From Phanerochaete sordida (Eukaryota; Basidiomycota; Agaricomycetes; Polyporales; Phanerochaetaceae): DNA of 64,000 nucleotides. The position numbers and the translations under genes were made by a program. Below, one piece after another: positions 1 to 19,905 of the stretch (positions are counted from its first letter, which is position 1; each line of letters begins with the position of its first letter). Location of the stretch: positions 1 through 64,000 of the forward strand of contig BPQB01000009.1 in the NCBI GenBank assembly GCA_019973155.2, read 5' to 3'. The notes below the pieces were generated by a model. The model was not told the origin of the DNA, did no database searches, and saw only the letters and a program-made list of their open reading frames with translations.

Positions 1-446
1 CGAGCTCCTCAACGAGGTCGCGCTCCCAGACCTCCCTGCGGTTCGGGTTCTTTCCGCCCTTGTTCTGCCTGCGAGCGAGCGCCTCGTCGAAATCGCGCTC
101 AGCCTCCCAGACGTCCCTGCGGTTCTTCCCGCCCTTGTTCTGCCTGCGCGCGAGCGCCTCGTCAAGGTCGCGCTCAGCCTCCCAGACGTCCCTGCGGTTC
201 TTACCGCCCTTGCTCTGCCTGCGCGCGAGCTCCTCAACGAGGTCGCGCTCCCAGACCTCCCTGCGGTTCGGGTTCTTTCCGCCCTTGTTCTGCCTGCGAG
301 CGAGCGCCTCGTCGAAATCGCGCTCAGCCTCCCAGACGTCCCTGCGGTTCTTACCGCCCTTGCTCTGCCGGCGCGCGAGCTCCTCGACGAGGTCGCGCTC
401 CCAGACGTCCCGGCGGTTCTTCCCGCCCTTGTTCTGCCTGCGGTGG
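1..446 (-). repeat. Coding tandem repeats, RRQNKGGKN units
   Basis: At least six in-frame units of about 72-81 bp inside precursor A. Two unit types alternate: one with WEAERD(F/L)DEALA and one with WERDLVEELA. Some copies insert PN after KGGKN. The pair FDEALA-unit plus PN-unit occurs twice, which points to a higher-order duplication. The array continues beyond the left edge. Confidence 0.9.
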
Positions 447-1046
447 AGCCCGTGGGCGTTCTTGCGGCCCTCCTGGAGCAGCTTCTGGCGGGTGTTGGAG
501 TTGTCGGTCTTGCTCTTCGCGTCGTGCGCGGCCTTGGCAGCAGCGGCCGCCTTCTCCGCCGCGGACGGCGTGTTCTTGGAGAAGGCGCCGCCGCGCGCGT
601 CGAGCTCGCGCTTGGGCTTGCCCTTCGCGGCGGCGGCGGCGGCGGCGGCCTTGAGCGCGGCCTCCGTCCCCCTGCCCATCCCCGGTATGAGGTTGGCGGC
701 GATCTTCGCGAGCGCCGCCGCGTCCTTGCCGCGCGCCCAGAGCTCTGCGTCGCTGCGGCGCTGCGGCGCGGGCTGCTGCTCGTCGTCGCCGCTGCAGGTC
801 ATGGTCAGTGTCGTGGTATGCGCTGCTGGCTGACTGTGCGCACCTGTGCGTGAAGTGGTCGACGATCGCACCGACGATGGGCGCGCCGGCGCCGACGATG
901 CTGGTGAGGGTCTTCAGAGAGAGTGCGCCGCTCTCGTCGGACGCGTAGGCGGGGACGTCGCGTGCGAAGGACGCGGTGTCCATCGGCGCGGCAAACGCGG
1001 GGGTCGCGGCGGCGATGGCGAGGGTAGCGAGGACGGCGGTGCGCAT
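1..1046 (-). CDS. Kex2-type repeat-peptide precursor A (3' end off window)
   Basis: Secreted repeat protein, function unknown. The start at 1046 opens a signal peptide (MRTAVLATLAIAAATPAFA) followed by the family module (SGALSLKT ... APIVGAIVDHFTH). A 52 bp intron (843-792) falls just after DHFTH and is needed to stay in frame. Exon 2 continues QQPAPQRRSDAELWARGKD, then an Ala/Lys-rich stretch, then at least six tandem units of 24-27 residues built on RRQ(N/S)KGGKN and RR(D/E)VWE, still running at base 1. Each unit carries two RR pairs, candidate Kex2 sites, so processing to many short basic peptides is plausible but inferred. It is the paralogue, in inverted orientation, of the gene at 18883-19905: the leader, the intron position and the segment DAELWARGKDA are shared, but the repeats differ completely. 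The stop codon lies outside the window. Confidence 0.8.
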
Positions 1047-1296
1047 GTTGAGGAGAGGTAGTTGGGTAAGTGAGAGTGGCAAGTGAGAGGTGGCAAGTGA
1101 GAGTGGTCGTGTGAAGATTATCGTGGCTGTCGTGAAAGAATGAAAAAGGGGCCGGGCTGAGGGCAGCTGTCAGTACAGCGAGCGGGAGACCGGCAGAGGC
1201 TTGCTACGTACCAACCAGTGCCGATGAAACGAAGAAGGACAGGAGAAAAGGGCTACCAGAGCTGGGGTTTGACTGTCGACGCAGCGAGCATTTATA
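1047..1296 (-). promoter_or_regulatory. Core promoter and 5'UTR intron of precursor A
   Basis: On the minus strand a TATAAATG box lies at 1296-1289. The leader contains a candidate 55 bp 5'UTR intron (1211-1157, donor GTACGTAG, acceptor CTCAG followed by CCCGGCCCC). TATA-to-donor distance is 85 bp, the same as in the other two family members at 15.7 and 18.7 kb. Confidence 0.65.
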
Positions 1297-2254
1297 CTCC
1301 AGAGTACGGCGATAGGCTGCCGTGGCGGCGTACGAGGTGGCGTTCACGCAGGGGCACTGACAGGCCGTCCAATCAAGGAGTGATGTCGCCGTGATGGCAT
1401 CGGGCGTTTCACGCACGGAGGGATGAGGGGGCAGTCAGTGTCCTTGACGCATACCGGCGTGAGCACAGAGATACGAGGAACGCGATCACGTTGAAAGCGA
1501 GGACCTTCGCAGAGCTGGACGAGGCAGTGTCACGTCCGCATGCCAACTTAGAGGCTGATGGATGAGTTAAAGTGATGTTCGGAGGTTTGACCAACACTCG
1601 CCTCGTAAAATCGCCTCTAAGGCACATGGCGTCATCACATCCCCACATTCTCGTCCACGGAAGTCCGAATGTGAGCAGCGCTTTCGAGCACAGGCTGTGC
1701 GACAAAGACGATGCAGTATTGAACCAAAATTCGCGCAGAGGAGGATGTGATCTGCGGTCACGCACATTAGACCGTACTATACGCCCGATGCGCACTGAGT
1801 TCTCACTAGCAGGTGTGATGCTGTGAAGACATGCCTGTGGTCATATTGAAGTTACTGGTCAAGTACTTCGGCCAGCGAAACTGCGCGCTAAAGTCCGGAA
1901 CACCTCTGTCCCAAGCAGGAAGGTCTTGTTGAACTCATCCCTCCCTGCCCGCTCTCAGATCATGATTGAAGCGATTTGTCGCAGTCCTCGTGGCAGTACT
2001 CGCCGTCAGTTAGAGGTAAAGGGAAGATAAGAAACGCATTGCTTACGCTCGAGGGATGTGGATAGTATGAGTGATCTACTGTCGGCTCTTCTTCCACGGG
2101 CCTCATTCAAGCTCCATACGCACCTTCGATTACTGCGCTTGCCACTGCGACATCTGAGCAGTGAGCACCGTGTTGAATTGTCCCTGGCACCTACCCACGG
2201 CAGTCAGACTGTCAGAGACTCGGAGGCACGTCAGCTTCTGCGGGGAAAAAATAA

Positions 2255-2326
2255 TTCCGACACGGGGAATCGAACCCCGGGCTATCGCGTGAGAGGCGAT
2301 AATGTTAGCCACTACACCATATCGGA
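2255..2326 (-). tRNA. tRNA-Glu (CTC)
   Basis: A 72 nt cloverleaf on the minus strand. The acceptor stem is TCCGATA paired with TGTCGGA (one G-U) plus discriminator A. The anticodon loop is CTCTCAC between the ATCGC and GCGAT stems, giving anticodon CTC (Glu, GAG codons). The T-arm contains GGTTCGAATCC. A T-rich run follows the 3' end, as expected for a Pol III terminator. It is identical to the copy at 39348-39419. Confidence 0.95.
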
Positions 2327-2626
2327 TTATACTGAACCGGTGCGTAGATAATCGGACAAACCAATAGCTATCCCCATATTTTGAAATGGTTCCTCGCTAA
2401 TTCCGCTGTAATCACAGAGTATATATAATACGTATGTAGAGAGCGTGTTCGTAAGCCAGTGGTGTACGTGGCTAGTGCTATGGAACGATATAGAGGTATT
2501 CACTAAGTGCATTAATTATTGTGTTGGGAAGTGACGCACCAATACTGGATAAATTTAAGTACCAACATGGGCCCGCGATTCGGAGCTAAACCACTTCGCT
2601 CGCCCTGCTATACTGCTCGCTCCATA

Positions 2627-3552
2627 TCAAAACTTGAGGCGAGCGACGAGTAGTCTGAGATAACGTACTCTTGCATCGCCGAGACCAGTCTTCGGGAGAT
2701 ACACGCAGATGAATCCAATGTGCCAGATGCCGATGGCGGTAACGGCGACTACTGGCAGGCAAAGAGCGAGGGTGTCCGCTGCCGACGATGTAGTGACACC
2801 TTGAGGCGTGACATCCGCTGTAAGCGTCAAGTTGTCCTTTCGAAGCGGTAGGATTGCCTGGGCGACCTCGGCGGCTGCAGCTCTGGATTCTACGGCGCTG
2901 CAGAGCAAACTTGCGACAGCAAATCCGAAAGTGACGAATGCCCTGCGTGACATCGTTAATAATAATACCTTGGACTGGGGGAGTGGGACGAACCACATTC
3001 TCCAAGCAGTTGGAGCCGATAATAACGTAGGCGCCGTCGTCGATAACGCCTCGGATTCATCGTGCGGTATGTCTGTCGTTCGACCGACGTCGGTGTCGAG
3101 GCGGCCTTGTATGTTGATCAAGTGTCGCGTCATGCTCCGCACGAGCACCATGCATACGAGGCAACAACATATGCAGACACAGCTCAACATCCCGGCTACA
3201 GCTAAGCCAGCGCTGCCCAATTGGAAGAATTGGCAACTGGCGAGCACAGTGACTGCCCTGATTTCCAGATATCAGGTCACAAGGGCAGCGTAGGAGAGGC
3301 GAGTCATGCGTACAAGACAATCCAAAGGCAGTCCCTTTTTGCTCGCGTCCAGCTGGCAGGTCGAGTCTCTTTCGCATTCTTGTGCTGCAGAACCGCAAGG
3401 TACTCCTCCACAAGCTGGGCACTCAGGACGGTTTGAGATGGGAGAGACAGCAGTAGAACGCGATGGTATACGAAAAAGAGGCGGCCTCCGATATTGGTCA
3501 TGAGTCGGTGCATAACCGCGTGGGCGTGGCGGCGTATGAACCCCAAGAGCAA
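2627..3552 (-). CDS. Hypothetical multi-pass membrane protein
   Basis: Not recognised. Two exons (3552-3314 and 3257-2627) join across a canonical 56 bp intron with the frame kept through WIVL/AVTVLASC. The product has about four hydrophobic segments: one after RLFFVYHRVLL, one running from WIVLAVTVLASC through a Cys-rich CVCICCCLVCMV stretch, one around FVTFGFAVASLLC, and one near the C-terminus (ALCLPVVAVTAIG). The joined model reads without stops for about 290 codons. The start is uncertain, with several Met near the N-terminus, and a further intron in the middle is possible. The nearest feature is the tRNA-Glu gene at 2255-2326. Confidence 0.45.
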
Positions 3553-4772
3553 AAATTCTACGCCGTGCCGTGAAGATTATCAGCGAAAACAAAGAAATCT
3601 GCGCTCAATGGATCATACCAAACATTTCTGGAAGATCTTGGCGATAACGTGTGTAACTAGAAGCTAAAATGCGAGAGATAGCGTGAGCGTGGTTTCTTGA
3701 ATGGAATATGGGGGAGGGGGGAGGGCATAAAGGTGGCATGCGCGCGGCTTTTGATTGCAATATATAGCTGTGCAGGAGTACTTACGCGAATCCCAGCCCC
3801 GCAGTCAGCCATGTGCAAACGCATTAGACAGGTGTAGGTCGTTTGAGGGCCACCCTCGACCAGATCAGACCCCTCGATACTCGCTCAATTAAAATGTGAT
3901 GAAAGCCTGCCGGTTGAATGCTGTGAGCAGAGAGGAAAATGCGTGACAGCTAACTCGGTACCGCACTTACAAGCAGCAAATAATAGGGAAACACGATGCT
4001 CGCACCGCAGACAGTCAGCGGCTGCATCAGTACGTAGAGACTCGTACCGACTTAACCGATCGATGGGTAGGTTCGCAGACGACGCAAGGTCATGTAGACA
4101 GGCGCTATGTTGTGGTACGAGGTTTCCCGAAGACTCTTGTCTGCTTTCGTCGCTTGCAAGACCTATTATAACCGTCGGAACTGCACGTTGATCTGTTCCC
4201 ATTGTCTGCCCACGAGTGGGCCACGAGGATTCAGCGCTTGATATGAGCTGTAAAGGCCGCACGCACAGTGAGGTAAATCATCTTGAACTCGCCGAGACGT
4301 CGCACACGCGGCGTGTTGAGTCGAAAGAGGTCGGCGGCGTCGGAGCCCCCCTTACTGATACAGCGCCGCCACCGCACTGCTTGATCGAGCGAGCTGGGCC
4401 CGGAGCGCGATTAGGTTATCCTCAGCCCAAAGCTGAGATTCGAATCGCGGACTGGCTGTGCAAACTTTGCTGCTGTGGCAGACTGCGACTTTTTCCAGTA
4501 CAAGTGTGAGAAGAGGGTAAGTGTGACGTAGCGTGGGCTTCGCAGAGCCTTCGTGGCGCCTAGTTTCTGGCACGCTTCGTTCGCGCTTTCGTGAATGTTA
4601 ATTATCGAAGCCCGTCGAACTGAAAATGCATTCATCGCAGTTGGTATTGACATGTGGGTTAGAGCATAGCTGTAAATATGTAGTACTTTGCGAACATCAG
4701 GAGAGATCGGAACAGAATCGGCGTGTGCTTACAAATGTCATGATGTGTAGGTTCCAAGGCTGCAGTCCGAAG
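3553..4772. other. Intergenic, no gene seen
   Basis: About 1.2 kb between the membrane protein start and the F-box gene end. Open frames here are short, overlap on both strands and lack splice-linked continuation. No repeat or RNA gene is visible. Confidence 0.5.
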
Positions 4773-5980
4773 TCACTTTCTGCACGGTCTATCCTCTTCA
4801 GAAACATGTAGAGCCTTCCGCTTGTGGAGCGCTGGGAACACCTTCTGAAGGCCCTTGCGGACCTCGCTCAGAGGTATGAAACCATCGTGCACGAAGTGCA
4901 CCGTCTCGACATCCCCATATCGCTCGCTATCGATTTCCCTTGCAAGCAACTCGAAGCCTTCGGGATTCTCGGTGTCGAAAGACTTGCCGAGAGTGACATG
5001 GAACGTCAGGGTGTGAAGGTTCTTTGGCGGCACTTCCTTCAGGAAGGCGACCATCGCGCGGGTCAGTGGGTTGAATAGGCGAAGCGAACGCAGATTGCGG
5101 CAGGGCGCGATACTGACCGCGCCCTTGATGACTGCAGGACGTAGATGAGCGAGCACGCGCAACACGTCAGCGGGCGGTGGCGCTTACGGTCGAACTCCCA
5201 AGACGAGCTGAAGAGCGCCTGGAGCTTGAGGCCGAGGTGCTCGAGGGTGGGGCCGATGGCGGCAAGGAGGCTATTAACGGGCTTCGCGTCGAGGACCTTG
5301 ACGGCGAGGTCGAGGCTGCGCACGGTATGGCGCGCGTCGCTCTTCTGGAACCAGTCGAGGAAGTCGGCCATCGTCGTCGACGGCTGCACGGCGAAGTCGA
5401 GCATGAGCGCGGTGAAGCGCGGGCGGCACACGAGCGGCGGCGCCTTCCAGACGGTGACCATCAGCGGGAGCATGCCGAGCACGACGAGCTCCTGCAGGCG
5501 CGGCAGCGAGCACGCGAACGCGCGCAGCGTCGGGATGTTGAGCGCCGAGTCGTCGAGCACGAGGCGCGTCGCGGACGCGAAGGCCGTGAAGCCGCGGAAG
5601 AACGCCGCGTCGCAGTACTCTCCGGCGTCGGAGAGACGCACGAAGCGTATGGTCTGCACGAGGGGCAGGAGGGGAGGGAGGACCTGGGGTATTCGGACCG
5701 CCCAGCGGATGCTGGCGCGGTAGGTTTTGGTGGGGGTAAAGGGCCCGAAGGTGAGTTCGCGGACGGAGAGGCCGATGTCCGGGTTCGCTTGGAGCAGGCT
5801 TTCCAAGTCTGAGAGCTTGGGCTCGTCGTCTACTTTGACCCGGCGGAAGACGTGGGCGCGCGTGACGGCGTTCCAGGCCTTGCAGACCGAGGCACAGGCT
5901 TGGAGCGACCGCCTGTCCAGCTTGGCGTATCCCACGATCTCGTCGATGAGCTCGACTGGGAGAGGTATGGCCTCTTTCAT
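4773..5980 (-). CDS. F-box protein
   Basis: Predicted substrate-recognition subunit of an SCF-type ubiquitin ligase. The start at 5980 gives an N-terminal F-box (LPVELIDEIVGYAKLDRRSL ... CKAWNAVTRAHVF, residues about 7-47), followed by a leucine-rich region resembling the variable LRR-like repeats of basidiomycete F-box proteins. Two exons (5980-5188, 5131-4773) are joined by a 56 bp intron (GTAAGC ... CTGCAG), giving 383 residues and reading F-D-L-I-K-G across the junction. The substrate cannot be told from sequence. Confidence 0.85.
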
Positions 5981-7033
5981 CGCGCGAATTCAGCCTGGGG
6001 TGCCGAATCCGAGCCTACTGGATGCAGATTAATGATGACGCCAGCTCGGGGCAGTGCAGGCTCTTCGCTCACTTCTCTCTGCGAAACTGTGCAGTCGACC
6101 GCCGGCGGATGTGTCCTCTGGCCCTGTCGTTCTCCGCACGGGCACAGAGTACAGAATCGTCGGCCCTCGTCGCGTTGGATTGCAGTCAACGACCATCGTC
6201 TCTGATCACGGAGATTCCGACCCGCGGGCTGCACCGCACTTCCAAATATGGAAGGTTCTGTCGTTGCCCCGAGGCACGAGCTAAACATGAGACACCCAAC
6301 GTGGAGGGAACACTTAGCGACCACTACAACAGTACTGTATACCAGCTCGTCATTGTGAAAAACAATGCAGGCGGGAGGCGGGAGTCGCTGCCGACGCAGG
6401 CGCAGACGGACATCGACTGCAGGCTGCGGGCCCCGGGTCCCGCAACCGCCGTTTTATCAGCACCCTTACCACAGTCCCTCAGTCCCAAAGCTCCGCTTTG
6501 CGAGGCGCAGCCTTTGTCACCAGTCCTCGCAGGTGCTAAGCGACGAGTCCCCCAGGCCGGAGGCAATGGCGCTCGGCGAGCGACGGCAGTCTTTGAGCCT
6601 CCAAACCAGCACACAGTCTAGAAATACAGTCGGCTATGCCTTTGAGTATGCACACGCCGGCTGCAGTCCGCTGGGTGGAAGACAATAAGCTCGCTTCGTG
6701 GGTGGTGCAGGCATGTCGGAGGGGCGACGCTACGCCGCCGACGCATGGGCCGCTCGTCCGGTCGTGCCGAGGGCGCATCACGGTGACGCAAGAGGCAGGC
6801 CGACGTGGGAGTGCTCAAGGGTCTGGTCGGACTAGAGGCGTAGCAGCCTGCCACCCACACTCTCAGAAAAGTGTGGCATGTCCGTGCACACGCCCACGGT
6901 GCACCACTGGCAGTGGCTTCGACTTCGATCTGATGTGCCCAGCGATCCAAACGTCGAAATTTCAATTTCACTCTTGTTATTACAGACTTCCAGGGATGTT
7001 GTACAACTTTGCGTCGCATCGGGCCCGCGCGCT
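5981..7033. other. Intergenic, no gene seen
   Basis: About 1 kb between two minus-strand genes: upstream region of the F-box gene and downstream of DPP5. Open frames of up to about 200 codons occur on the plus strand, but they show no recognisable domain or coding bias and overlap others on the minus strand. Confidence 0.5.
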
Positions 7034-9886
7034 TCAGTGCTCTCCCACATACTTGTCGAACCAGCGGAAGACCTCGTAGTGCCACTTCAAGCTATCCCAG
7101 GCGTCAGCACGACCAAAGACTCCGCGGCAACACGCCCACGCACCTGTTGCCATGGTTCATCACCCAGTGGTTCTCGTCGGGGAAGATAACGAGGCGACTC
7201 GGGATGCCAAGCCTACCAGCGCGTCAGCGACCGTCGCAAAGCCGACGAGGAGCGCGAGAACGTACTGCTGCAAAGCGTGGAAGGCACCAATGCCCTCGGT
7301 CTCCGGGAGACGGTAGTCCTTGCTGCCGTGCACGATGAGCATCGGCGTCGACCAGTGCGGGACGAACTCCACGGGGTTGTATCTAGGCAGCGCGGTCAGC
7401 GCGGGCGGTCGTCACGGTGAGGAATGTAGCGCACTTGTCGATGATCTCGCGAGCCTCAGGTTCCCAGGGGCGTCCTCCCCACTCATGGTTGAACTAGGAC
7501 AATCCGGTGAGTGAATTACTTTGCTTTTGAAGACGACCGCGACGTACGAAGAACAGCTCATCGGTCGAGAAACCGTTGTAGCGAGCGTCGAAGACACCGT
7601 CGTGGCAGAACAACGCCTTGAAGCCGAAGCCAAACTCGGGGTGGCCTTGGATCCAGCTATCGACAGTGCTAAGCGGAGACTCTCATTGCTGCAGAAGCGG
7701 TACTCACTTGATGGCATAGCCTCCCCAGCTGGCACCGGCAGCAACCGCGCGGTCGGGGTCGACCTCTGGGAAGTTGTCGAGGATGTACTTGTATCCCTTC
7801 TGCAGGTCGACGAAGGGCTTGCTGCCCCAGTTCTTGCGGATAGCGTCGGTGAGCTCTGTAGTAGGCGACGTTTGTAAGCGTCACATTACCGCGGACGAGA
7901 CCGCAGCGAAATCGTACCCTGTCCAAACGTGGTCGAGCCAGTCGGGTTGATGGCAATTGTGAAGTAACCCTGCTGAGCAAAGACTACGAACAGCATCAGT
8001 CTCAAAAGTCAGATGCCACTTTGTTCGGGATCACACTCACCTTGGGGGTTCCACCGCGTCGACCACTGGTCCTCCCAGGCGCCCTGGGGCCCACCGTGGA
8101 TCAGGAACATAATCGGATACTTCTTCTTCGCGCCCTCCTTGAAGCCAGGTGGCTTCACGATCCAGCCGTGGATCTTGTGCTCCGCGCCATCGAAGTAGAA
8201 GTCCTCGCCAGGGTTGAGCGTCTTGCCCTTGAGCGCGTCCGCGGTGAACTTCGTGAGCTGCTCGACCTTGATGCCCTTGACGGAGTCGCGCGTGACGTGC
8301 TCCGTGAGGTTGCGAAGGACGAAGACGTCGTTCGGCGCCGTGAGGCTGTTGTGCGTGAAGAGCAGGCGGCCGTTCGGCAGCACCTGGATGCCGGACACCG
8401 CGCCCGAGTTCGTGATGGCGGCAGGGAGCAGGTCGTCGGGCAGGTCAGGGTGCGTCGTGGACGCCTTCGGGGTCTCCGGGAGCGTGATGGCGAACACCTT
8501 GATGCGTGCAAGATCGCCCGCTGCCAGGTACAGCACTTTGCCCTCGGGAGAGAACTGGAGGTACACAGGTCAAATGGCTTCCACGTCTGGCTGCGCTAGA
8601 AACTCACAGCGAGCTCGCCTGCGCTACGGTCCCACTTCTGCGTAAGTGTGTACCTCACGTCCTTCTTGAAATCGTAGATGACGACCTTGCCTCTGCGGCT
8701 AGTCAGAACTCGACGCGCCACCATACACATCAGAGGGCTCACCTGTCCGACTCGTAACCATCAAGGTCAAGCTCGACCCACGCAGCCTTATCGCCCTGCT
8801 GACTGAACACCGGCGCACGGGTGGCGCCTTGCTTGCCAGAGGTCAGCTCCTTCGCCTCTGACTTGCCTTCGATGTCGACGATGAAGATATCCTGTTTGGT
8901 GTGCCAGGCGGGCGGCAGCTTCGGGTCCTTGGTCGTGTAGATGACGTGCGTGCCGGACACGTCGAAGTCGTCGGTTCCGCCGAAAGGCTCGACGGGGGCG
9001 TGCTAACGGAGGAGTCAGCGGTGCGCCGCGTCCACATGCACGAAGACGTACGTGTTTGGTACCATTCAGAAGGTTTGTAAACTTCTCTCCCAAGCTCCAC
9101 TTGCCATCCTTGCCCTTCTTGAGAGTAGCCGAGAACAGCGAGCTCCGCTTGGGGCCGACCCAGTTGTCCCAGTGCCTCTCGAACGTCTCCTCGTAAACGA
9201 ACGCAGAGTCACCGCGGTTCTCCCACTGCTCGTCCTGCTTCTTGACCGTCGTCAGGTCGCCGTCAGGGTAGACGTAGTCCGAGAAGACGAGGTAGTCCGA
9301 TTTGCCGTTGAACTTGAAGTTGCCGACCGAGGACGTGGGGAACTTGCCGATGAGAGCAGGGCTCTCAGGCGTGCTGAGGACCGTGGCACCGCTGCTCTCG
9401 GTCTCGTACTTGACGGACCAGCTGTAGAGGGCCTTGACCTTCTCTTTGCCTTCGCCCTCGTCGACAGCGTGCGCGATCGTGCGCGAGTCCAGCCAGAACG
9501 CCTCGCCGCCGCTCGCGAGCGGGACTTCGACAGGCTGGACCGTGGATTCGATGGGCGCGATGAAGATCGACTGGTGGTTCCTGCACGCTCCCGTCAGCCT
9601 GTGAGCGACGCCGCGCCGCTCTGCGCACGCACTTCTTCTCCTCGAGGGAGTACTTGCTCACGGGCACGATGAGGAGGTCGCCCGCCGCGTTCGCGACGCC
9701 GGTGCCGGGTCTGGCGAGGCGGACGAGGTCGATGGGCGAGAAGAGCTCCGCGCCCTGCTTGAAGCTGAAGTCGGCGGCGCCGTACGACGCGACCATGTCT
9801 GGCGGTGGTGCTGGTCGCGGTTCGAGGGGAACTTGGGCTACGAGGCCCAGGATCGATGCGGGCACGCCGAGGCCTGAGAACCACAT
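7034..9886 (-). CDS. DPP5: Secreted dipeptidyl-peptidase 5 (S9C)
   Basis: Secreted serine peptidase that removes dipeptides from the N-terminus of peptides. The start at 9886 gives a signal peptide (MWFSGLGVPASILGLVAQ). Eleven short introns are needed, with frame-consistent joins such as EEKK/NHQS, NPQ/VFAQQGY, IDK/YNPVEF and NHGNS/LKW. The N-terminal half resembles the beta-propeller part of the family (for example DEQWENRGDSAFVYEETF). The C-terminal alpha/beta-hydrolase has LIHGGPQGAW, nucleophile Ser in GASWGGY, Asp in HGSKDYRLP and His in DENHW, so the catalytic triad is complete. Length is roughly 740 residues, normal for DPP5. The stop is at 7036-7034. It is transcribed away from EAF6. 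Confidence 0.92.
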
Positions 9887-10219
9887 CGTGGTTGCGACTC
9901 AACGTGCTGGATCCGGCCCTGTCTCACGCGAGAAACGCGTTTGTGTGCGTCACGGGCATATGGAGCATCACGGTGCCCACACGCCCGTCGGCCCAGCCCA
10001 CATCGGTCCTCCCGACCACTGCTCCCGCGCCCGCACTTCCCACCGTCGGCAGCGTGTGTGTCCTCGTCGCGGCGAGTGTTGCTGAAGGGCGTGCAAACGA
10101 TGTCTGCGCGTGATGTGCCTGGGCGATGACGATGGAGGCTGGTGTCACGAGGAAGACGCGGCGTCGAGGCGAACAATCACAGGGCGCTCTTGTTTCCCAC
10201 CCACAACGTCGACGACCCC
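9887..10219. promoter_or_regulatory. Divergent promoter region DPP5/EAF6
   Basis: The 333 bp between two divergent starts. No unambiguous TATA box is visible. It must hold both promoters if the starts are right. Confidence 0.4.
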
Positions 10220-10911
10220 ATGTCCAACGACATCGCCGTGCCGACGGCCGAGGACAAGTCGCGGTACGATGCCGCCAAGAAAGAGCTGCTGCAGGCGTTG
10301 GCGAAGAAGCGGATGGTGGACAAGTCCCTCGTGAGTTGTGGCGCCGTGCGCCAGTTCCTCGCTGCTCACTCGACACTCCAGGCGCAGCTCGAAGTGCAAA
10401 TATACAACCTCGAGAGCAACTACCTCACGGAGACGGGCACGCACAGCGGAGGGAACATCGTGCAGGGCTTCGACGGCTACCTGAAGAACGCTCCGGGCGG
10501 ACGGCGGAAACATGAAATCAGCGACGCGGACAGGATGTTCTCAAATAGCAGTGTCACGGTCAAGAAGGTGAGCATGCAACTTCTCCTGTCAAGTATTCGT
10601 GACACCTAGTGCTAGCTACCCTGAAGGCCTTAGAGCTCTCTGGAGAAGGCGAAGAGTCCACTGCCACTGCCGACGAACACGGCTCGCGGGGCCCTACGCC
10701 AGGACTGACCACAGTCGTCGTCCCGCCGGCAAAACAGGAGTCGAACGCTGCAGCCCAGAAGAAGCAGCGCGACCGGGAATACCAGAGGAAGAAGCGGGCG
10801 AGCATGAGCGCGGCGCGGCGCAGCCAGCAGTTGAGCGACGAGGAGAGCGTCACATCCACCGCCTCGAGTCGTCGACCCAACAAACGCGCACGGCTTGGGG
10901 ACGACGACTGA
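10220..10911 (+). CDS. EAF6: Histone acetyltransferase complex subunit EAF6
   Basis: Small nuclear subunit of the NuA4 acetyltransferase (MEAF6 relative). The first 100 residues match the family closely: KKELLQALAKKRMVDKSL, QLEVQIYNLESNYLTET, HSGGNIVQGFDGYLKN, GRRKHE and DADRMFSNSS. Three exons (10220-10330, 10382-10567, 10627-10911) give 193 residues. The second intron is placed at 10568-10626 so that TVKK joins ALELSGEGEE in frame. The C-terminal 90 residues are a charged tail with basic clusters (RKKRASMSAARR, RRPNKRARLGDDD) that look like nuclear localisation signals and are longer than in yeast. Confidence 0.92.
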
Positions 10912-11003
10912 GGCCTTCGGAGCTGGATGGGTATGCCAGTTTGTGTGTATTCTAGATGTACAATTACTCAGTGTATACAGTAGTAGCACGGCACCTCGAC
11001 TGA

Positions 11004-11848
11004 TCATATATCCAACGTGCCCAGGAACTTTTTCACGCCGAGCTCGTCCATGCCTCCGCCGTCGGGGTCGACGGCTTCTATGCAGCGCGCTATGGCGATG
11101 GTGTGTTTTGGCTCTTTCGTGCTGACCCATACGCGGCCGTTAATACCAACTGCGACGTCGAGGGGGAATTTCGAGCCGAGGAGAGGGAGGAGGAAGTGGG
11201 TTGGGTCGAGGAGCCTGCAGAGTGTAATGCGTTTGAGATACCAGATAGAGCGGACGAAGTCTTACCATCGCGACATCTGCAGACTGCACTTCACCAGGAA
11301 TCCCCCCTTGAGCTCTCCGTACCCTTCTGCTTTTCGTGTTTGCGCGTCGAAGCACTCGAGCTCAGGCTCCATGTCCTTGTGGGCTAGTGACACTCTTGCG
11401 TACAGCGCTGACCCGACCTGAGCTATGTCAGCGGACGTACGACTCGATGCAAATGGCTACACACCTTGAGCTGTGGCCTATTACGCTTCGTCGCGCCTTC
11501 GAAGGCCAGGCCGTCCAGCGAAGCCATATGTGCAGAACCGATGTCCACCCGCCAGTTCTCGCCACTGCGCGCGATCACGACGCCAATGACGGCCTCCTGT
11601 GCCGCAGGCACATACTGCCGCGCCTTGCATGAGCACATCCCGCAGAACTTCGCCAGAGCGAAACTCACCCGCCGCGAATTGCCCTCGACCCACCACTGGC
11701 GGTTGTTCGGCGTGTGCCTGAGCTCGCCCGCGCGCGTCGAGATGACCGCGCTGTTCTGCGCCGCGTCCGCGACCTGCAGGAGCCCGGGGCCGAGCTTGAG
11801 GTTCACGTGCTGCGCGGGCACGGACTCGCCGGGGAGCACGAAGGTCAT
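11004..11848 (-). CDS. RRP40: Exosome subunit RRP40
   Basis: Cap subunit of the RNA exosome, which binds RNA and guides it to the 3'-5' nucleases in the nucleus and cytoplasm. The start at 11848 gives MTFVLPGESV, then LKLGPGLL, the S1-domain signature VIGVVIARSGENWRVDIGS with ASLDGLAFEGATKRNRP, and a KH-like C-terminal part (ECFDAQTRKAEGYGELKGG, INGRVWV, HTIAIARCIEAVD). Three introns are needed: after NSRR, after QLK and after QMSR. The gene converges on EAF6 (92 bp between stops) and shares a 97 bp promoter with VPS37. Confidence 0.93.
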
Positions 11849-11945
11849 GGTGGTGGAGAAGGCGGGACGGAGGAGGCGACGTTGCCGCCCGTGCGCCGCA
11901 TCCGCTCGCGAAGCGCGGGCTTGAGCTTGATCTCTGACGTCCACG
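11849..11945. promoter_or_regulatory. 97 bp bidirectional promoter RRP40/VPS37
   Basis: The start codons of two divergent housekeeping genes are only 97 bp apart, so both transcription starts must lie here. No TATA box is visible. Confidence 0.6.
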
Positions 11946-12627
11946 ATGGCGACGCCGCTGCTCAGGGACTTTCCGGAGCTGTCTCATCTGACGTACGTAT
12001 CCTGCTCGCTCTGTGTGTGCTAGACCGCTGAGAACGGCACAGGCGAGAAGACCTGGAGGATCTCCTCGCGGACCCGGTCTACTTCCAGGCCGTCTTTCAC
12101 TCTCTGGACAAGGTGAAAGCCCTGTACCAAGGGCAAGCAGAGCTCGGGACGGCAAACGAGGCCATAGCGAGTACGCTCACCCGCGCCATATGTCTCCTCC
12201 CGGGCTGACCGTGCCAGAGAACAACCTCGCGCTGCAGGAACCGTTGTATAAGCTGCGCAGCGACACCAAGGACGCGTTCGACGAAGCGAAGCGGCTCGAG
12301 GCACGCTGGAAGGAGGTCGAGCGCGAGCAGCGTGAGCTGTACCAGGTGCGCCCTCGTGCGCCCTCGCGCCGTGCAGCCCGTCTGACATGTCTGCAGCGCC
12401 ACGAGCCGCAGTTCCTGCTCATGCGCCTGAAGCACGCGACGACCGCGCAGGACGACCTCTCGGAGGCGACGGCGTCGCGCTTCATCAAGAGCGCGCCGGA
12501 CGCGGCGCAGAACGGGAAGGACATCGACGACTTTGTCAAGGAGTTCCGGGAGCTGCGCCGAACGTACCACCGGCGGGTTATCCTGGGCGACCGGTGGACG
12601 ATGGGCGATGTTGCTGGATTCAACTGA
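11946..12627 (+). CDS. VPS37: ESCRT-I subunit VPS37 (Mod(r) domain)
   Basis: Component of ESCRT-I, which sorts ubiquitinated cargo at endosomes. Four exons (11946-11992, 12043-12170, 12218-12345, 12397-12627) give 177 residues. The helical Mod(r) domain fills most of it: FPELSHLTREDLEDLLADP at the N-terminus, then AKNNLALQEPLYKLRSD, the coiled segment EAKRLEARWKEVEREQRELY, and the C-terminal DDFVKEFRELRRTYHRRVI. Length and order match the short fungal forms. Introns of 47-51 bp keep frame at every join. Confidence 0.88.
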
Positions 12628-13701: not shown

Positions 13702-15034
13702 ATGCCTCCGATCCGCCGCAACCAGTACAGCCCGCTTGGGAACCCTGCGAGCAAATCAGCCGATGAACACACGTTTCAAGTCTGGCTTAACACCTTGAAG
13801 AAGCCTCTGTACGACAGATATGGCGTGGACCACACAGAAGTCAGTCTGCGACCCGTGCAAGGGGGCGCTAGGGTGCGCAACTTCTTCATCGCTCAAGCGT
13901 CATACGCTGATCTTGTATGCGCCTAGCTTGAGTGCCCGATATGCATCGATAACAACAACAACCACATAACTGTCGAAACCAACAACGAGGTGAAGAAGCA
14001 CCGGCACGAGGGAAGCACCGGGCACAAGAGGGCTGCAGCCCTCTACGTCTGCTCAGACTCCGAAGCCCTCATGATGAGCGACATTTGCCCGCGGTGCAAT
14101 AAAGGGTACGCCTCCAGTCTGCCTCAGGTCGCGCACCGCCGCTGACGTCGACACGTTCATCAGCTTCAGCCGCAATGACAGCTTCAAGCGCCATTGGAAC
14201 GCGGAAAGCTGCCTCGAAGACAGCGAGAAGAAGAAGAAGAAGAAGACGCGCACGCGCGCTGGTAAAGCCACCGCGTCCTCGTCGCGCGAGTCCTCCGCGG
14301 AGTGGACGCCGCCGCCGGCCCCTGCGTACAACCCCTACGCTCGGACCCTGCGCTCTTCCTCCCGGCGCACCACCGCACACCGGAGCGCATCGACGTCTTC
14401 GCCCGAGCCCTCTTCGTCGTCGTCGTCGTCGTCGCCGTCCTCGGCGGCGAGCCCCGAGCCGTTCTTCGGCGTCGCCTCTTCCTCCAGCACGCCCATGACC
14501 TCGCGCTCGGTGTCGCCACTCGCCCCAGGGGCCGCGGCCGAACTGTGCCTCGACCTGGAGAAGATGTTCGCGCCATCGTACAGTGGCTCACCCGAGCCCG
14601 AGCCCTCCCCTATGGACGACGTGCTCCCGTCGCCGGACGCGCTCCCCTCTCCGGACGCCTTCCCCGCCGAGCCCTCCCCGAGTCACGCCCCCGCCACGCC
14701 ACTGGCTCACACGCCCTTGTGGGCGGCACCGGACGAGCACGACGTGATCTTCGACGCGTACCGGAGCTTCGACGCGGACGCGTACCCGATGTGCGCGCTG
14801 TCGACCGACTTCGACTTCGCGGCTCCCCCATGCCGTACTCCGGCCTCGTTCGACGGCCTCGACGCCTCGCTCAGCAGCGTCTTCGACACGACGCTGGATC
14901 CCTTCGGCCCCCGGCTCGATGCCTTCGCCTTCGAGCCCGCTGCGCCCCAGTGGGCCTGGCCCGCGAGCGAGCCGGCGCGGGATGTCGCGAACGACGAGGA
15001 GTTCCTGGCGTTCCTGAGCGATGTCTTCCAATGA
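13702..15034 (+). CDS. C2H2-type zinc-finger protein
   Basis: Probable DNA-binding regulator. Three exons (13702-13872, 13927-14105, 14164-15034) give 406 residues. Exon 2 encodes a first zinc-binding region (LECPICIDNNNNH ... KKHRHEGSTGHKRAA). Across the second intron a more typical finger reads CPRCNKGFSRNDSFKRHWN. A KKKKKK basic patch follows, then Ser/Pro-rich low complexity with poly-Ser, and an acidic-aromatic C-terminus (for example DEHDVIFDAYRSFDADAYP and NDEEFLAFLSDVF) that looks like an activation domain. The target genes cannot be inferred. The first intron removes an in-frame TAG at 13924-13926 and leaves phase unchanged. Confidence 0.8.
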
Positions 15035-15744
15035 CGGTGCTGGCGGGCCGCTTCGCTTCGTGGTCTGTACTGTTCTCGTAAGTATCCCCATCGCATTTGT
15101 ACTTCTAGCATCGCAGCCGTGTCCTGTATATCCCCCACTCCATCTGTCTGTGTATCTCGTAGCTTCGCCATAGAGTCTCTGTATGTTGTGTATTGTGCTC
15201 ATCTTAATTTATATATATTTCACGACAGTGGTTTTTCATTAATTGGGCGTGTCCGAATCCACGCCCGTTGCGAAAAGCGCCTGTCTTCGTGGCGTCTGAT
15301 GAAGATGCTGTGCGGGCGGCTCGTCGCTTCTTCTCAACCACCTCGACGTGCCGCAAGCCCCGTCCATGTGAGCGTCCAGCAGCTCCGTGCTATGCATCGT
15401 CGGCGCTGCCAGACGCAACCCCGAACACGCATAGCTTGGAGCTCCCCACGGGCCTTGTTTCGGGGGCTGGCGCGACGCTGATAGCGTCCTCTTCTGTTGC
15501 GGGCCCTCTTTGATGCATCACCTCGGCACGAAGCCACGCTCTCCACAACTCTGTGCAGCAGACACGCCTGCCCGTACGTCCGTCGGTGCGTCGCAGGCAT
15601 TGCACGGCATGGCGTCGTCTATTCCGTGTTGAAACGCGGTAGCGCATCACTCGTTAATCAGGTTCATGATCGTATGTCCACCTATGCGTGATAGCGCAAC
15701 ATAGCACGCTCCACAGGTCTCGTTTGCGCGCGTACGCGGGTGGG
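15035..15744. other. Intergenic
   Basis: 3' flank of the zinc-finger gene and upstream part of the precursor B promoter. No gene, repeat or RNA is recognised. Confidence 0.45.
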
Positions 15745-15981
15745 TATATAAGCCTGGGTCGCCTGGTCACTGTTTCCCCAGCTCCGGGAGCCACTTTCAT
15801 ACAGCCTTTCTTCAAGTCGGTACTGGTTGGTACGTAGAGCGTGCCATGGCCGGCTTCACCACTTTGCTGACTCCTCGCCTCTAGCCTGACTTGCTTTTCT
15901 GTCATTCACACTCTCCTACGACCTTCACGACCGTCCTTGCACGACCGCACCCCACACGCACCCCACCTTCAACCCTCAAAC
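15745..15981 (+). promoter_or_regulatory. Core promoter and 5'UTR intron of precursor B
   Basis: TATATAAG at 15745-15752. A 55 bp candidate 5'UTR intron spans 15830-15884 (GTTG/GTACGTAG ... CTGAC ... CTCTAG). The TATA-to-donor distance is 85 bp and the donor context TACTGGTTGGTACGTAG is shared with precursor A. Confidence 0.7.
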
Positions 15982-17740
15982 ATGCGCACCTCCGCCCTCG
16001 TCGCCTTCGTGGCCCTCGCCGTCGCCTCGCCCGCATGCGCCGCGCCCTTCAACCCGGTCTTCGCCCGCGACGCGCCCGCCGCGGACGCGTCCGACGACAG
16101 CGGCGCGATCTCGCTCAAGACCGTCGGCACCATCGGGTCTATCGCGGCGCCCCTGGTCGGCGGCGTCATCGACCACTTCACCGGCGACCAGCAGCAGCGC
16201 CGCGACGCACCGGGAGAGGGCTCAGACGATGACAGCGGCGCCATCTCCCTCAAGACCGTCGGCACCATCGGGTCGATCGCGGCGCCCCTGGTCGGCGGCA
16301 TCATCGACCACTTTACGTTAGTTCACACGTCTAGTACTCGCTTCGCACAGCTGACGTCGTCTTCCAGCGGAGACCAGCAGCAGCGGCGCGACTCGTCGAT
16401 GGACAGCTTCCAGCAGGCGATGCAGGGGGATGCGCAGGGCAGCAGCGCACAGACCGCCGCGCAGATGCAGCAGATGCAGCAGCAGATGCGCGGTGCGCAG
16501 CAAGGCCCTAAGTGCGTCGTTCCCCTTACTGTCTCTCGCACCCGTGCTAACGTGTGTGTTCGTTTGCCCCTCGCAGCCAGAAGGTCGGCGCCCGCGCGGA
16601 GGAGGACGAGGACAGCGGCGCGATCTCGCTGAAGACGCTGGGCACCATCGGCTCCGTCGCTGCGCCCCTTGTCGGCGGTATCGTCGACCACTTCACCGGG
16701 TGAGCATGTCTGACATGGGTTCTTACGCGCCTGTACTAAGACCATGCTCCAGCGGCGACCAGCAGCAGCGGCGTGAGCTCCTGTCGCTGCTCGCACGCGA
16801 GGCAGGCGATGACGAGGACAGCGGTGCGATCTCCCTGAAGACGCTGGGTACCATCGGCTCCGTCGCCGCGCCCCTGGTTGGCGGTATTGTCGACCACTTC
16901 ACCGGGGACCAGCAGCAGCGCCGCGATACCCAGGCGAGCGACGACGACGATAGCGGTGCGATTTCCCTGAAGACCATTGGCACGATCGGGTCCGCTGCGG
17001 CACCCCTTGTCGGTGGCATCATCGACCACTTTACTGGGTGAGCGTGCTCGGCACCCATTTCCTCGCCGTGGCTGACACCATCCTCCAGCGGTGACCAGCA
17101 GCAGCGCCGCGAGATTCTGTCTCTGCTCGCCCGCGAGGCCGTCGACGACGAGGACAGCGGCGCGGTCTCCCTGAAGACCCTCGGCAACATCGGGTCTATC
17201 GCCGCATCGGCGGCACCCCTCGTCGGGGGCATCGTCGACCACTTCACCGGCGACCAGCAGCAGCAGCGCCGCGAGGCGCCAGGCTCGGACGGCGACAGCG
17301 GCGCGATCTCGCTGAAGACGGTCGGCACCATCGGGTCGATCGCCGCCCCGCTCGTCGGCGGCATCATCGACCACTTCACAGGGTAAGCGTCCCTTGCGCA
17401 CGCATTGACCCTAAGGCTGACGGCTACTCCAGCGACCAGCAGCGCCGCGGCGACACGGACGTCGGCAGCACCTACAACCCCATCCACGGCTCGGGCGGAG
17501 CGTGGAGGATCCCGCCGCGGCCCGCGTTCGAGGGGCGCGACCTCCTCGCGCTCCTCGCGCGCGCCACCGCAGACGACTCGGAGAGCGGCGCGATCTTCCG
17601 CGCGCCGGGCTCCTTTGGGCCGCACGGGCCGTTCGTCCACCCGCCCGTGGACGGCTTCCCGAAGGTGTAAGTGTTCTCTTGATCGTGTCCCAGATTGTCG
17701 CCGCTGACACGAACGATGCAGTGCTCCGGCAGCGCAGTAG
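15982..17740 (+). CDS. Kex2-type repeat-peptide precursor B (seven modules)
   Basis: Secreted repeat precursor, function unknown. A signal peptide (MRTSALVAFVALAVASPACA) precedes seven near-identical modules of the form SGAISLKTVGTIGSIAAPLV then GG(I/V)(I/V)DHFTG, each followed by DQQQRR. The RR pairs are candidate Kex2 sites. Cutting there would release peptides of roughly 40-50 residues with an acidic N-terminus and a hydrophobic core. Exons: 15982-16316, 16368-16511, 16577-16699, 16753-17037, 17089-17382, 17433-17666, 17722-17740. Four of the six introns fall at the same place, right after DHFT or DHFTGG. The last exon is short and rests on a GTAAGT donor; if that intron is retained the stop is TAA at 17668-17670. 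An eighth degenerate module (SGAIFRAPGSFGPHG) ends the protein. Exon 2 inserts a Gln/Met-rich linker. Confidence 0.85.
16093..17382 (+). repeat. Seven repeated module copies with embedded introns
   Basis: Direct repeats of about 90-150 bp encoding SGA(I/V)SLKT ... DHFTG. Several copies share the intron at the same codon phase, so copies were duplicated as genomic exon-intron units rather than by retrotransposition. Confidence 0.85.
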
Positions 17741-17984
17741 GGGACGTGTGCGGAATTTAGAGGGGTGCGGGAAGTCGAGGACCGGTCACGTGGATATAGT
17801 AATGACCAGAATGTGCAATGCAATGGCTGGCTCTCGGTCTCATAACCTCTCTGGTGTGATGCAAGCTGGTCTGTGGAGCGGTAGCAGGCCTTTGACTGAA
17901 TGACTGAAAAATAGAGAGTAGAACCTGCTTTACTGAAAATGACCGCGACAGTCATGGCGAATTGTCCTAATGATGATCTATGTC

Positions 17985-18882
17985 AGGACGGGCAGTGAGG
18001 AAGTCCGTTCAACAGGCCCTTCCTGTTCGGGACAGAAGTGTTCCGGACTTTAGCGCGCCGTTTCGCTGGCTGAAGCCCTTGACCAGCTACTTCAATGTGA
18101 CCACAGGTGCTATGTCTGCGCTACATCACACCTGCGGGGGAGTACCTGGCGCGCATTGCCGTCTCGCGGCACGGTACTGTCCAGCCTGCGTGACCGTAGA
18201 CCCCATGTTCACATTCTCTTCTGCTTGAATTTCCGTCAAATGTCATCCTTCTCGCACAGCTTGCGCGCGAAACCGCTGCTCATGTTCGCACTTGCGAGGA
18301 CGATGACGTGGGGATGCGATAACTCCATGTGCCCGAGAGGCGATTTTACGAGGCGAGTGTTGGTCAAGCCGACGAATATCACTCCAGCTCATCCACCAGG
18401 GTCTAGTTGGCATGCGGACGTGGCACTGCCTCGTCCAGCTCTGCGAAGGTCGTCGCTTTCAACGTGATCGCGTTCCTCGTATCTCTGTGTTTACGCCGGA
18501 ATGCGTCAAGTGCACTGACTGCCCCCTCACTCCTCCATGCGTGAAACGCTCGAGGCCATCAAGGCGATATCACTCCTTGATTGGACAGCCTGCCAATGAA
18601 CTTGGGGCAACGCCATCTCGTACGCCGCCACGGCTGCGCATCACCGCGCCGTGGCGTATAAATGGCCGCTGTCCCGACACTTGAACCCTAGCTCTGTTAA
18701 CCTTTCTCTCCTGCTCCTCCTCATTGCATCCGCACTCGTTGGTCCGTAGCAAGGCCCAGCCAGTCTCGCATCCATTATACTAACGGTTGCTCTCAGCCCG
18801 GCCCCATTCGAATTTTATCGCGACAGCCGTGTCTACAATCCTCCCACGACTACTCTCATTAGCCCGACTACCTCTTTTCAAC
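17985..18882 (+). promoter_or_regulatory. Promoter of precursor C, right arm of inverted duplication
   Basis: About 750 bp matching the reverse complement of 1200-1945, with TATAAATG at 18657-18664 and a candidate 55 bp 5'UTR intron at 18742-18796 (donor GTCCGTAG, branch CTAAC, acceptor CTCAG, exon resuming CCCGGCCCC). The TATA-to-donor distance is 85 bp, as in precursors A and B. Upstream, 17741-17984 shows no feature. Confidence 0.75.
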
Positions 18883-19905
18883 ATGCATACCGCCGTCTTC
18901 GCCACTCTTGCCATCGCAGCCGCCGCGTCCCCTGCCTTTGCCGCGCCGACGGACAATGCGTCGTTTGCACGCGACGTCTCTGCCGACGGGCCGTCAGACG
19001 AGAGCGGCGCGCTCTCTCTGAAGACACTTACCAGCATCGTGGGCGCCGGCGCGCCCATCGTCGGTGCGATCGCCGACCACTTCTCGCACAGGTGCGCACG
19101 GCGCCAGCTAGTAGAGCACACCACGACACTAACAACGACCTGCAGTGACGACGGCGAGCAGCAGCCCGCGTCGCAGCGCCGCAGCGTACCGGGTGTACTG
19201 GCAGCGAGAACCGGGGGCAAGACCGGGGACGCTCCTCCTAAGCGTGACGCGGTGGTGCTCGCAGTGAGAACTGGGGGCAAGACCGGGGATGCTCCTCCCA
19301 AACGCGACACGGATGTGCTGACAGCGCGTACCGGAGGCAAGACCGGCGACGCTCCTCCCAAGCGCGATACGGAGGCGCTGGCAGCGCGAGCCGCTCCTGG
19401 TAAGACCGGGGACGCTCCCCCCAAGCGCGACGCGGTGGTGCTCGCAGCGAGAACCGGGGGCAAGGCGCGGGCTGCTCCTGGCAAGGCCGGGGACGCTCCT
19501 CCCAAGCGCGACGTGGAGGTGCTGGCAGCGCGAGCCGCTCCTGGTAAGACCGGGGACGCTCCTCCCAAGCGCAACACGGAAGTGTTGGCAGCGAGGACCG
19601 GGGGCAAGACCGGGGATGCTCCTCCCAAACGCGACGCTGAGGCGTTGGCAGCGCGAGCCGCTCCTGGCAAGACCGGCGACGCTCCTCCCAAGCGCGACGC
19701 GGCGGTTTTCGCAGCGAGAACCTGGGCCAAGACGCGGGACGCTCCTGGCAAGACCGGAGATGCTCCTCCCAAGCGTGACGCGGAGGCGTTGGCAGCGCGG
19801 ACCGGAGGCAAGACTGGGGATGCTCCTCCCAAGCGCGACGCGGAGCTCTGGGCGCGGGGCAAGGACGCGGAGGTGCTGGCGCGTAGCCTGGAGGAGCTGG
19901 ACTAA
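18883..19905 (+). CDS. Kex2-type repeat-peptide precursor C (ten PPKR motifs)
   Basis: Secreted repeat precursor, function unknown. The signal peptide is MHTAVFATLAIAAAASPAFA, followed by one family module (SGALSLKTLTSIVGAGAP ... DHFSH), a 54 bp intron (19092-19145) at the conserved position, then QQPASQRRS. Exon 2 is an array of ten GDAPPKR motifs in units such as DAEALAARTGGKTGDAPPKR. Cutting after KR would give peptides of 20, 21 or 27 residues, all starting with Asp or Asn. Linkers alternate between RTGGK and RAAPGK. The C-terminus DAELWARGKDAEVLARSLEE matches the start of exon 2 in precursor A, confirming common origin. Length is 322 residues. The intron is a multiple of three, so the unspliced reading frame is also open. 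Confidence 0.85.
   Translation: MHTAVFATLAIAAAASPAFAAPTDNASFARDVSADGPSDESGALSLKTLTSIVGAGAPIVGAIADHFSHRCARRQLVEHTTTLTTTCSDDGEQQPASQRRSVPGVLAARTGGKTGDAPPKRDAVVLAVRTGGKTGDAPPKRDTDVLTARTGGKTGDAPPKRDTEALAARAAPGKTGDAPPKRDAVVLAARTGGKARAAPGKAGDAPPKRDVEVLAARAAPGKTGDAPPKRNTEVLAARTGGKTGDAPPKRDAEALAARAAPGKTGDAPPKRDAAVFAARTWAKTRDAPGKTGDAPPKRDAEALAARTGGKTGDAPPKRDAELWARGKDAEVLARSLEELD
19198..19845 (+). repeat. Coding tandem repeats, TGDAPPKR units
   Basis: About ten imperfect units of 60, 63 or 81 bp encoding (D/N)xxxLAAR-(TGG or AAPG)-KTGDAPPKR. The 27-residue units contain an extra K(A/T)R(A/D)APG segment. The period differs from that of precursor A, although promoter and leader are shared. Confidence 0.9.

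What the first reader, a model, noticed from the sequence alone, without database searches (positions are those of the whole stretch)
1..19905. A cluster of three secreted, dibasic-punctuated repeat precursors: a candidate new Kex2-processed peptide family
Seen: three genes share a signal peptide, an SGA(I/L)SLKT...AP(L/I)VG...DHF(T/S) module, and repeats separated by RR or KR. Known: Kex2 cuts after KR/RR, and fungal Kex2-processed repeat proteins yield repellents such as Ustilago Rep1, pheromones and RiPP precursors. Inference: each gene releases many copies of small peptides, about 40-50 residues from B and 20-27 from C. I do not recognise this module from a described family. It could supply surface-active, signalling or antimicrobial peptides.
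Basis: partly seen in the sequence, partly recalled or inferred. Interest (0 to 1): 0.92.

Follow-up and report, generated by a model that had tools for sequence, protein, structure and literature searches.

The report
Fungal multi-peptide precursor gene family
A wood-rotting fungus carries a family of secreted precursor proteins that look built to be cut into many small peptides, with much the same start, spacers and end in its genes but different peptides in between, which suggests a changeable stock of short, probably membrane-active or signalling peptides.

Summary
A, B and C are spliced, probably secreted repeat precursors; my model of B is identical to PsYK624_043330 of Phanerochaete sordida. 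They belong to a larger family: at least 12 genes in this genome, five of them in one cluster if contigs C22 and C9 adjoin, and 39 database proteins, the 10 named ones all from Phanerochaetaceae, Irpicaceae or Meruliaceae.

Shared are a leader, an acidic spacer R|(E/D)..ELLAR| and often a C-terminal RSL(N/E)(D/E)LD. A tail-only search found three further members with other cores. Before 117 spacers P1 is Arg in 104 and never Lys, while P2 is Arg or Lys about equally: protease-like. The dibasic pair stands at only 65% of 175 junctions.

A, C and D2 are 75-86% identical upstream and in the leader exon but 54-58% in the repeat exon. SGA-type cores are helix-amphipathic.

[quoted passage not shown] Cleavage and function are inferred. 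The paper lists I saw show no description of it.

The parts
844..1046 (-). Gene A exon 1: signal peptide and leader module (SGALSLKT..DHFT), ends in a phase-2 intron
1..791 (-). Gene A exon 2 (open at the contig end): repeats alternating QNKGGKN-RR and DVWE..EALA-RR
   Evidence: probable 3' end with tail LARSLEELD* on contig C22
1..442 (-). 75/225-bp tandem repeats of gene A
15982..17741 (+). Gene B (PsYK624_043330): exons 15982-16316, 16368-16511, 16577-16699, 16753-17037, 17089-17382, 17433-17666, 17722-17741; seven SGA(I/V)SLKT..DHFTG..QQRR modules; all introns phase 2; no RSLxxLD tail
16069..16197 (+). Module 1 of gene B, 43-aa predicted peptide; predicted helix over residues 14-38 (mean pLDDT 61)
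18883..19091 (+). Gene C exon 1: signal peptide and leader module
19146..19905 (+). Gene C exon 2: units of the type TGGKTGDAPP-KR-D..LAAR and C-terminal tail LARSLEELD*
1047..1446 (-). Upstream region of gene A, 76-80% identical to those of C and D2 over 362-369 aligned bases
18483..18882 (+). Upstream region of gene C, 75-76% identical to those of D2 and A

Best explanation
These are polypeptide precursors of the Kex2-processed repeat protein (KEP) kind. The signal peptide sends the chain into the secretory pathway (inferred from sequence). A Kex2-like protease cuts after RR or KR ahead of an acidic helical spacer (E/D)L..ELLAR, and probably also after the single Arg that ends the spacer; carboxypeptidase trimming of the basic residues would follow (inferred from KEP studies). 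The core peptides are thus released in many copies and the spacers discarded. Leader exon, spacer and, in most genes, the C-terminal tail are kept while cores are replaced, probably by local tandem duplication: hydrophobic amphipathic ~40-mers in B, QNKGGKN in A, TGGKTGDAPP in C, Ala/Lys-rich 48-mers in D2. I think the hydrophobic cores most likely act as membrane-active helices against competitors (about 0.35 on its own; not tested).
For: Family profile search: 37 proteins, 39 distinct. In 117 eight-residue spacer matches P1 is Arg in 104 and Lys in 0 at the first site, and Arg in 117 of 117 at the second; P2P1 is RR 36, KR 34, QR 20, other 27 (A, C, D2 left out; a match needed K or R on at least one side). 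In a second count that fixed R at P1, P2 is K/R in 65% of 175 junctions against 3-11% at P3-P7. Gene A makes the second site dibasic as well (LARR). The tail pattern gave 9 genome hits against 0 in the reversed control: six in genes already found, three in new members with His-rich, FNFLNFVKGLL-type and SFGSDFVDGFKKGF-type cores. Upstream and leader are more conserved than the repeat exon among A, C and D2. B modules have dN 0.051, dS 0.835 over 15 pairs of the six gap-free modules. Helical moment of SGA-anchored cores: mean z 1.61 (sem 0.19) over 46 clusters, above 0 in 42; strand z -0.43. Kexin-type P domain at C5; DPPIV_N at C35.
Against: 35% of junctions lack the dibasic pair, and in some relatives every counted junction has Q, A or S at P2. 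With cruder clustering the helix signal is weak (11 clusters, mean 0.68, sem 0.48, 7 of 11 above 0). Core net charge averages about zero, unlike classic cationic antimicrobial peptides. Synthetic KEP peptides of Coprinopsis showed no antibacterial activity and six kep knockouts had no apparent phenotype (PMC9769878). AlphaFold gives no confident fold of the precursor and only a modest helix for the peptide. B lacks the tail; exon 2 of A and D2 still aligns well above shuffles (134 against 33), so their interiors are partly homologous. No expression or peptide data were available.
Confidence: 0.66

Rival explanations
1. Rep1-like repellents: the released ~40-aa B peptides coat aerial hyphae as surface-active amyloid fibrils.
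For: Size and layout resemble Rep1: 12 repeats of 34-55 aa cut at Kex2 sites into amphipathic peptides (PMC4617103, passages). B has 7 modules, most in fragments of 42-54 aa.
Against: SGA-type cores score for helical, not strand, amphipathicity. Cores of A, C, D2 and the His-rich C1 gene are hydrophilic or charged and fit a coat poorly. No sequence link to Rep1 was tested.
Confidence: 0.17
2. Signalling peptides, pheromone-like KEPs with Kex2 and Ste13-type trimming.
For: Gene C has KR-DAEALA in places, like X-Ala dipeptide runs; a DPPIV_N gene exists; such KEPs occur in Basidiomycota (PMC6339444 passages; PMC9769878).
Against: Only 2 of the 10 KR-preceded C units have DAEALA; the others begin DA, DT, DV or NT without such a run. 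Core turnover among paralogues is unlike a conserved ligand, though each gene could have its own.
Confidence: 0.13
3. Uncut secreted repeat proteins: RR/KR lie inside a helix such as QQQRRELEELLAR and serve structure, not cleavage.
For: One spacer is in a predicted helix (residues 204-219 of P0001, pLDDT about 70); 35% of junctions lack the dibasic pair.
Against: Lys never occurs at P1 (0 of 117) although it is common at P2, a protease-like rule that helix packing would not obviously impose. No compact fold is predicted, though the alignment was poor. Gene A's second site is dibasic.
Confidence: 0.12
4. Degenerate EF-hand calcium-binding repeats, as two database names suggest.
For: P0002 passes Pfam EF-hand cut-offs (EF-hand_7 39.2 bits against 30); P0019 has a precomputed EF-hand match, and P0016 and P0004 carry EF-hand names.
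Against: Only 7 of 196 loops have the full set D1, D/N/S3, G6 and D/E12; P0004 is below the cut-off; the other 16 of the 18 proteins I scanned show no EF-hand match at the thresholds used (P0019 was not rescanned); by eye the pre-loop helix is missing in several B modules.
Confidence: 0.03
5. Cyclised RiPP (dikaritin-like) precursors.
For: Kex2-repeat layout; 15 UstYa matches in the genome.
Against: None of the 15 lies on a contig that holds a family gene I found (C1, C6, C9, C22, C29, C76, C77, C134); the repeat cores of A, B and C have no Tyr.
Confidence: 0.03

Closest known systems
Kex2-processed repeat proteins (KEPs) of Agaricomycetes, e.g. Coprinopsis KEP 497993
   Same: Signal peptide, repeated cores flanked by KR/RR, possible additional cuts after single Arg, N-terminal Gln cores (compare QNKGGKN)
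   Different: Here one spacer and usually one tail are shared by genes whose cores look unrelated; cores in B are longer and hydrophobic; I recognise no shared core with the peptides quoted in the sections read (by eye)
Ustilago maydis Rep1 / Hum3
   Same: Amphipathic repeats of 31-55 aa separated by Kex2 sites (PMC4617103 passages)
   Different: Strand/amyloid behaviour not indicated here; homology to Rep1 not tested; Hum3 has a hydrophobin domain, which no Pfam scan of 18 relatives showed
Candida Ece1 / candidalysins
   Same: Multi-peptide precursor (eight Ece1 peptides, PMC10899660 listing) and amphipathic helical peptides (PMC8787473 abstract)
   Different: Different phylum; sequence relation not tested, by choice; no toxicity known
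Frog-skin and insect multi-copy antimicrobial precursors (magainin, apidaecin; recalled)
   Same: Several peptide copies with acidic spacers and constant leader with variable mature part
   Different: Analogy only, other kingdom; not tested

Membership tests
KEP class | N-terminal secretion signal | tested here: met
   Read by eye in A, B, C; no signal-peptide program available
KEP class | Similar repeats separated by KR/RR | tested here: met
   A, B, C fragments
KEP class | Dibasic sites conserved in relatives | tested here: inconclusive
   65% of 175 junctions; P1 Arg 104 of 117, Lys 0
KEP class | Cleavage by Kex2 in vivo | not testable with these tools
   Only a gene with a kexin-type P domain found
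Dikaritin RiPPs | UstYa gene near the precursor | tested here: not met
   15 hits, none on the contigs of the family genes found
Dikaritin RiPPs | Tyr-bearing short cores | tested here: not met
   No Tyr in the repeat cores of A, B, C
EF-hand | Full calcium-coordinating loop | tested here: not met
   7 of 196 loops
Rep1 repellents | Amyloid-like surface-active peptides | not testable with these tools
   Sequence statistics favour helix
Rep1 repellents | Sequence homology to Rep1 | not tested
   Rep1 sequence not fetched
Candidalysin family | Amphipathic helical released peptide | tested here: inconclusive
   Moment statistics, helix 14-38 at mean pLDDT 61
Candidalysin family | Sequence homology and membrane lysis | not tested
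   Not compared; bench work needed
Alpha-pheromone-like KEP | X-Ala/X-Pro run after each Kex2 site | tested here: not met
   DAEALA in 2 of the 10 KR-preceded units of gene C; in B only DAPA after the single Arg before module 1

The most novel reading that the evidence does not exclude
A largely fixed secretion-and-processing chassis (leader exon, Arg-bounded spacer, C-terminal tail) into which unrelated peptide cores have been swapped within one fungal genome, giving a fast-changing arsenal of membrane-active peptides in phlebioid wood-decay fungi, comparable in logic to variable venom or skin-peptide families.
Probability: 0.33. Interest if true: 0.8.

Novelty: new variant of a known kind. 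Interest (0 to 1): 0.6.

Why it matters
KEPs are widespread in fungi but mostly without known function. This family offers a conserved tail and spacer that can be used to predict unseen members (three found that way here) and a set of paralogues with the same processing frame and different cores. That makes it testable which residues direct processing and what the peptides do to neighbouring microbes in wood.

Tried and rejected
Searching with gene C residues 1-90 found no database protein, not even gene C itself (1271 candidates, none at E 0.01), so A and C may be unannotated. A spacer pattern GAGCTNYTNGCNCGN was less common than its control (89+82 against 125+126). The dibasic spacer pattern gave 17 hits against 0 in the control; 13 fall in family genes, four (C5, C18, C74, C135) showed no repeat precursor in the 1.9-2.5 kb fetched and were dropped as chance. 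Pfam matches differed among relatives and were judged artefacts of summed weak repeats or hydrophobic helices: EF-hand, Spidroin_N, PDC10_C, DinB, and most often DUF4064 (above cut-off in P0005 and P0006; precomputed for 6 of 39 proteins); B itself comes just under the cut-off of a phage holin model (24.5 against 24.8 bits), which I did not take as evidence. PDB search with P0004 alone of the family: nothing below E 0.01. The spacer table counted overlapping matches and was replaced. One search included a few segments that ran over a spacer; one search excluded those and required longer segments. The family file written held gene C with exon 2 one base out of frame and was used. The spacer and P1 counts (45, 93) left A, C and D2 out and one search left A and C out of the moments; searches did not leave C out. 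Recounting loops and tails with the right C gave the same 7 of 196 loops and added C to the tails. One search placed the D2 exon boundary one base off.
Full report
WHAT IS THERE. The window is the start of contig C9 of an unnamed 40.8-Mb genome. My spliced model of gene B is identical over 477 aa to PsYK624_043330 of Phanerochaete sordida (P0001). Three more family proteins of that species, P0008, P0018 and P0029, come from contigs of 162,801, 160,024 and 469,895 bases, the lengths of C76, C77 and C22 here, so the genome is P. sordida (strain YK-624 is read from the locus tags). Signal peptides were judged by eye.

THE CLUSTER IS LARGER. The last bases of contig C22 carry gene A's repeat and an end..RRDVWERDLVEVLARSLEELD* (tail at C22:469721-469744). 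The two contigs therefore probably adjoin and the assembly broke in the repeats; this was not proved. Two more members lie just inside C22: D1 (P0029) and D2. Others are on C76, C77, C6, C134, C1 (two) and C29. That makes at least 12 genes; I did not complete the models on C6, C134 and the second one on C1. Genome searches score only the best candidates, so 12 is a lower bound.

RELATIVES. A B-query found 13 proteins and a profile of them 37 (7,997 candidates scored); 39 distinct in all. Ten carry a species name, from P. sordida, Phlebiopsis gigantea, Hermanssonia centrifuga, Irpex rosettiformis, Cytidiella melzeri and Trametopsis cervina, which belong to Phanerochaetaceae, Meruliaceae and Irpicaceae. 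The other 29 have no species name. Absence elsewhere is not shown, because the search keeps only candidates sharing most words. Of the 39, 18 were scanned against Pfam; matches differed from protein to protein, DUF4064 being the most frequent of those that came near or over a cut-off.

COMMON ANATOMY. (1) Signal peptide and leader module, followed in A, C and D2 by a phase-2 intron within three residues of DHF(T/S); all six introns of B are phase 2, four of them likewise close after a DHFT, and its internal exons (144, 123, 285, 294, 234) are multiples of three, as expected if modules spread as exons. (2) An acidic spacer between cores. In 175 spacers from 38 of the 39 proteins (A, C and D2 left out; Arg at P1 fixed by the search) P2 is K or R in 65%, against 3-11% at P3-P7. 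When P1 was left free but a basic residue was required on at least one side, 117 eight-residue spacers had Arg before them in 104 cases and Lys in none, and Arg after them in 117; the P2P1 pairs were RR 36, KR 34, QR 20 and 27 others. Lys is thus acceptable at P2 but not at P1. That is the recalled preference of Kex2 and is hard to explain by helix packing. In B only three of the spacers are of this full form; the other RR sites are followed by short, mostly acidic stretches. (3) A C-terminal RSL(N/E)(D/E)LD or close variant in 21 of 39 database proteins (several of the others are fragments) and in D2 and C, and at A's probable distal end. B lacks it.

PREDICTION TEST. A DNA pattern for the tail alone gave nine matches in the genome and none for the reversed control. 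Six were in genes already found. The other three were unseen precursors with a signal-like start and the spacer but other cores: a His-rich one with no clear unit, one with 11 hydrophobic units such as QSGAFNFLNFVKGLL-RR-ED, and one with four units such as SFGSDFVDGFKKGFVGTLKTVGPLVLGLL-KR. Tail and spacer therefore define the family better than the SGA module.

CORE REPLACEMENT. Between A, C and D2 the 400 upstream bases align at 75-80% identity and exon 1 at 80-86%, while exon 2 aligns at 54-58%. Exon 2 scores still exceed shuffles (A-D2 134 against 33, A-C 68 against 30, C-D2 47 against 26), so the interiors are partly homologous; by eye the shared pieces are spacers and short elements. D1 and B are more distant throughout (upstream 59-68%, exon 1 62-72%). 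By eye, A's QNKGGKN unit resembles the end of D2's 48-residue core and C's unit resembles an element shared with A, so local tandem expansion is a likely route. Within B the modules are conserved: dN 0.051 and dS 0.835 over 15 pairs of six modules; the seventh, with an insertion, was dropped. Some RR and KR codons differ between copies while the residues stay.

WHAT THE PEPTIDES MAY DO. Over 165 SGA-anchored core segments in 46 clusters (A, C and the C1 genes not included, one C29 segment added) the helical hydrophobic moment exceeds shuffles (mean z 1.61, sem 0.19, 42 of 46 above zero), and the strand moment does not (-0.43). Cruder single-linkage clustering into 11 gives 0.68, sem 0.48, 7 of 11. 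Net charge of 181 cores averages about -0.2. AlphaFold gives no confident fold for the B precursor (mean pLDDT 47, pTM 0.23, 27-row alignment of repeats) and a helix over residues 14-38 of the first module at mean pLDDT 61; both are weak evidence. Membrane-active helices are my preferred reading for the hydrophobic cores; repellent-like coating and signalling remain open, and the short hydrophilic cores of A and C may act differently.

COMPARISON WITH THE LITERATURE. KEPs are a known class: 7,878 in 1,345 of 1,461 strains, highly diverse (PMC7329392, abstract and passages). In Coprinopsis, Lentinula and Pleurotus KEP peptides were detected by mass spectrometry; in Pichia expression cuts after single Arg were suspected; N-terminal Gln was often cyclised; six knockouts had no apparent phenotype and no antibacterial effect was seen (PMC9769878, Results parts 1 and 2 of 3 and Discussion read). 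Rep1 and Hum3 of Ustilago are repeat precursors of similar unit size (PMC4617103, passages). Candidalysins are amphipathic helical peptides (PMC8787473 abstract and outline). For novelty I saw only listings: 15 papers, 15 of 29, 12 of 13,765, 12 of 230, 10 of 17 and 5 of 5; none of those listed describes this family by title or abstract start. The main texts of PMC7329392 and PMC6339444 do not name Phanerochaete, and PMC7329392 does not name Hermanssonia or Irpex; it lists Phlebiopsis in a type (#7) of 49 genera whose relation to this family I could not check. Supplementary tables could not be opened, so these genes may be in such a list.

VERDICT. What is new is the frame: a KEP family, so far seen in phlebioid fungi, with shared leader, Arg-bounded spacer and tail, and replaced cores. 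Shown: gene structures, homology, site statistics, divergence of the repeat exons. Inferred: contig adjacency, cleavage, release, function.

Noticed in passing
window 1 and contig C22:469895: The two contig ends probably adjoin: the same repeat and a gene end with the family tail sit on the end of C22.
   Followed up: partly
window 8009-8566 (-): S9-family peptidase-like exon between genes A and B, weak PDB match (best E 4.4e-4), no Pfam match; could be a dipeptidyl peptidase, link to the precursors unknown.
   Followed up: partly
window 5063-5980 (-): F-box-like protein (PF12937).
   Followed up: no
window 10142-10609 (+): NuA4 histone acetyltransferase subunit (PF09340).
   Followed up: no
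window 11423-11944 (-): Exosome component RRP40-like exon.
   Followed up: no
L080 1783-2708 (+): Family gene on C1 with a strongly His-rich core (HGHKHHGHK..), possibly metal-binding.
   Followed up: no
P0014 (Trametopsis cervina): Two main module kinds in one precursor, many junctions being RR after one and QR after the other, so different fragment sizes might be released.
   Followed up: no
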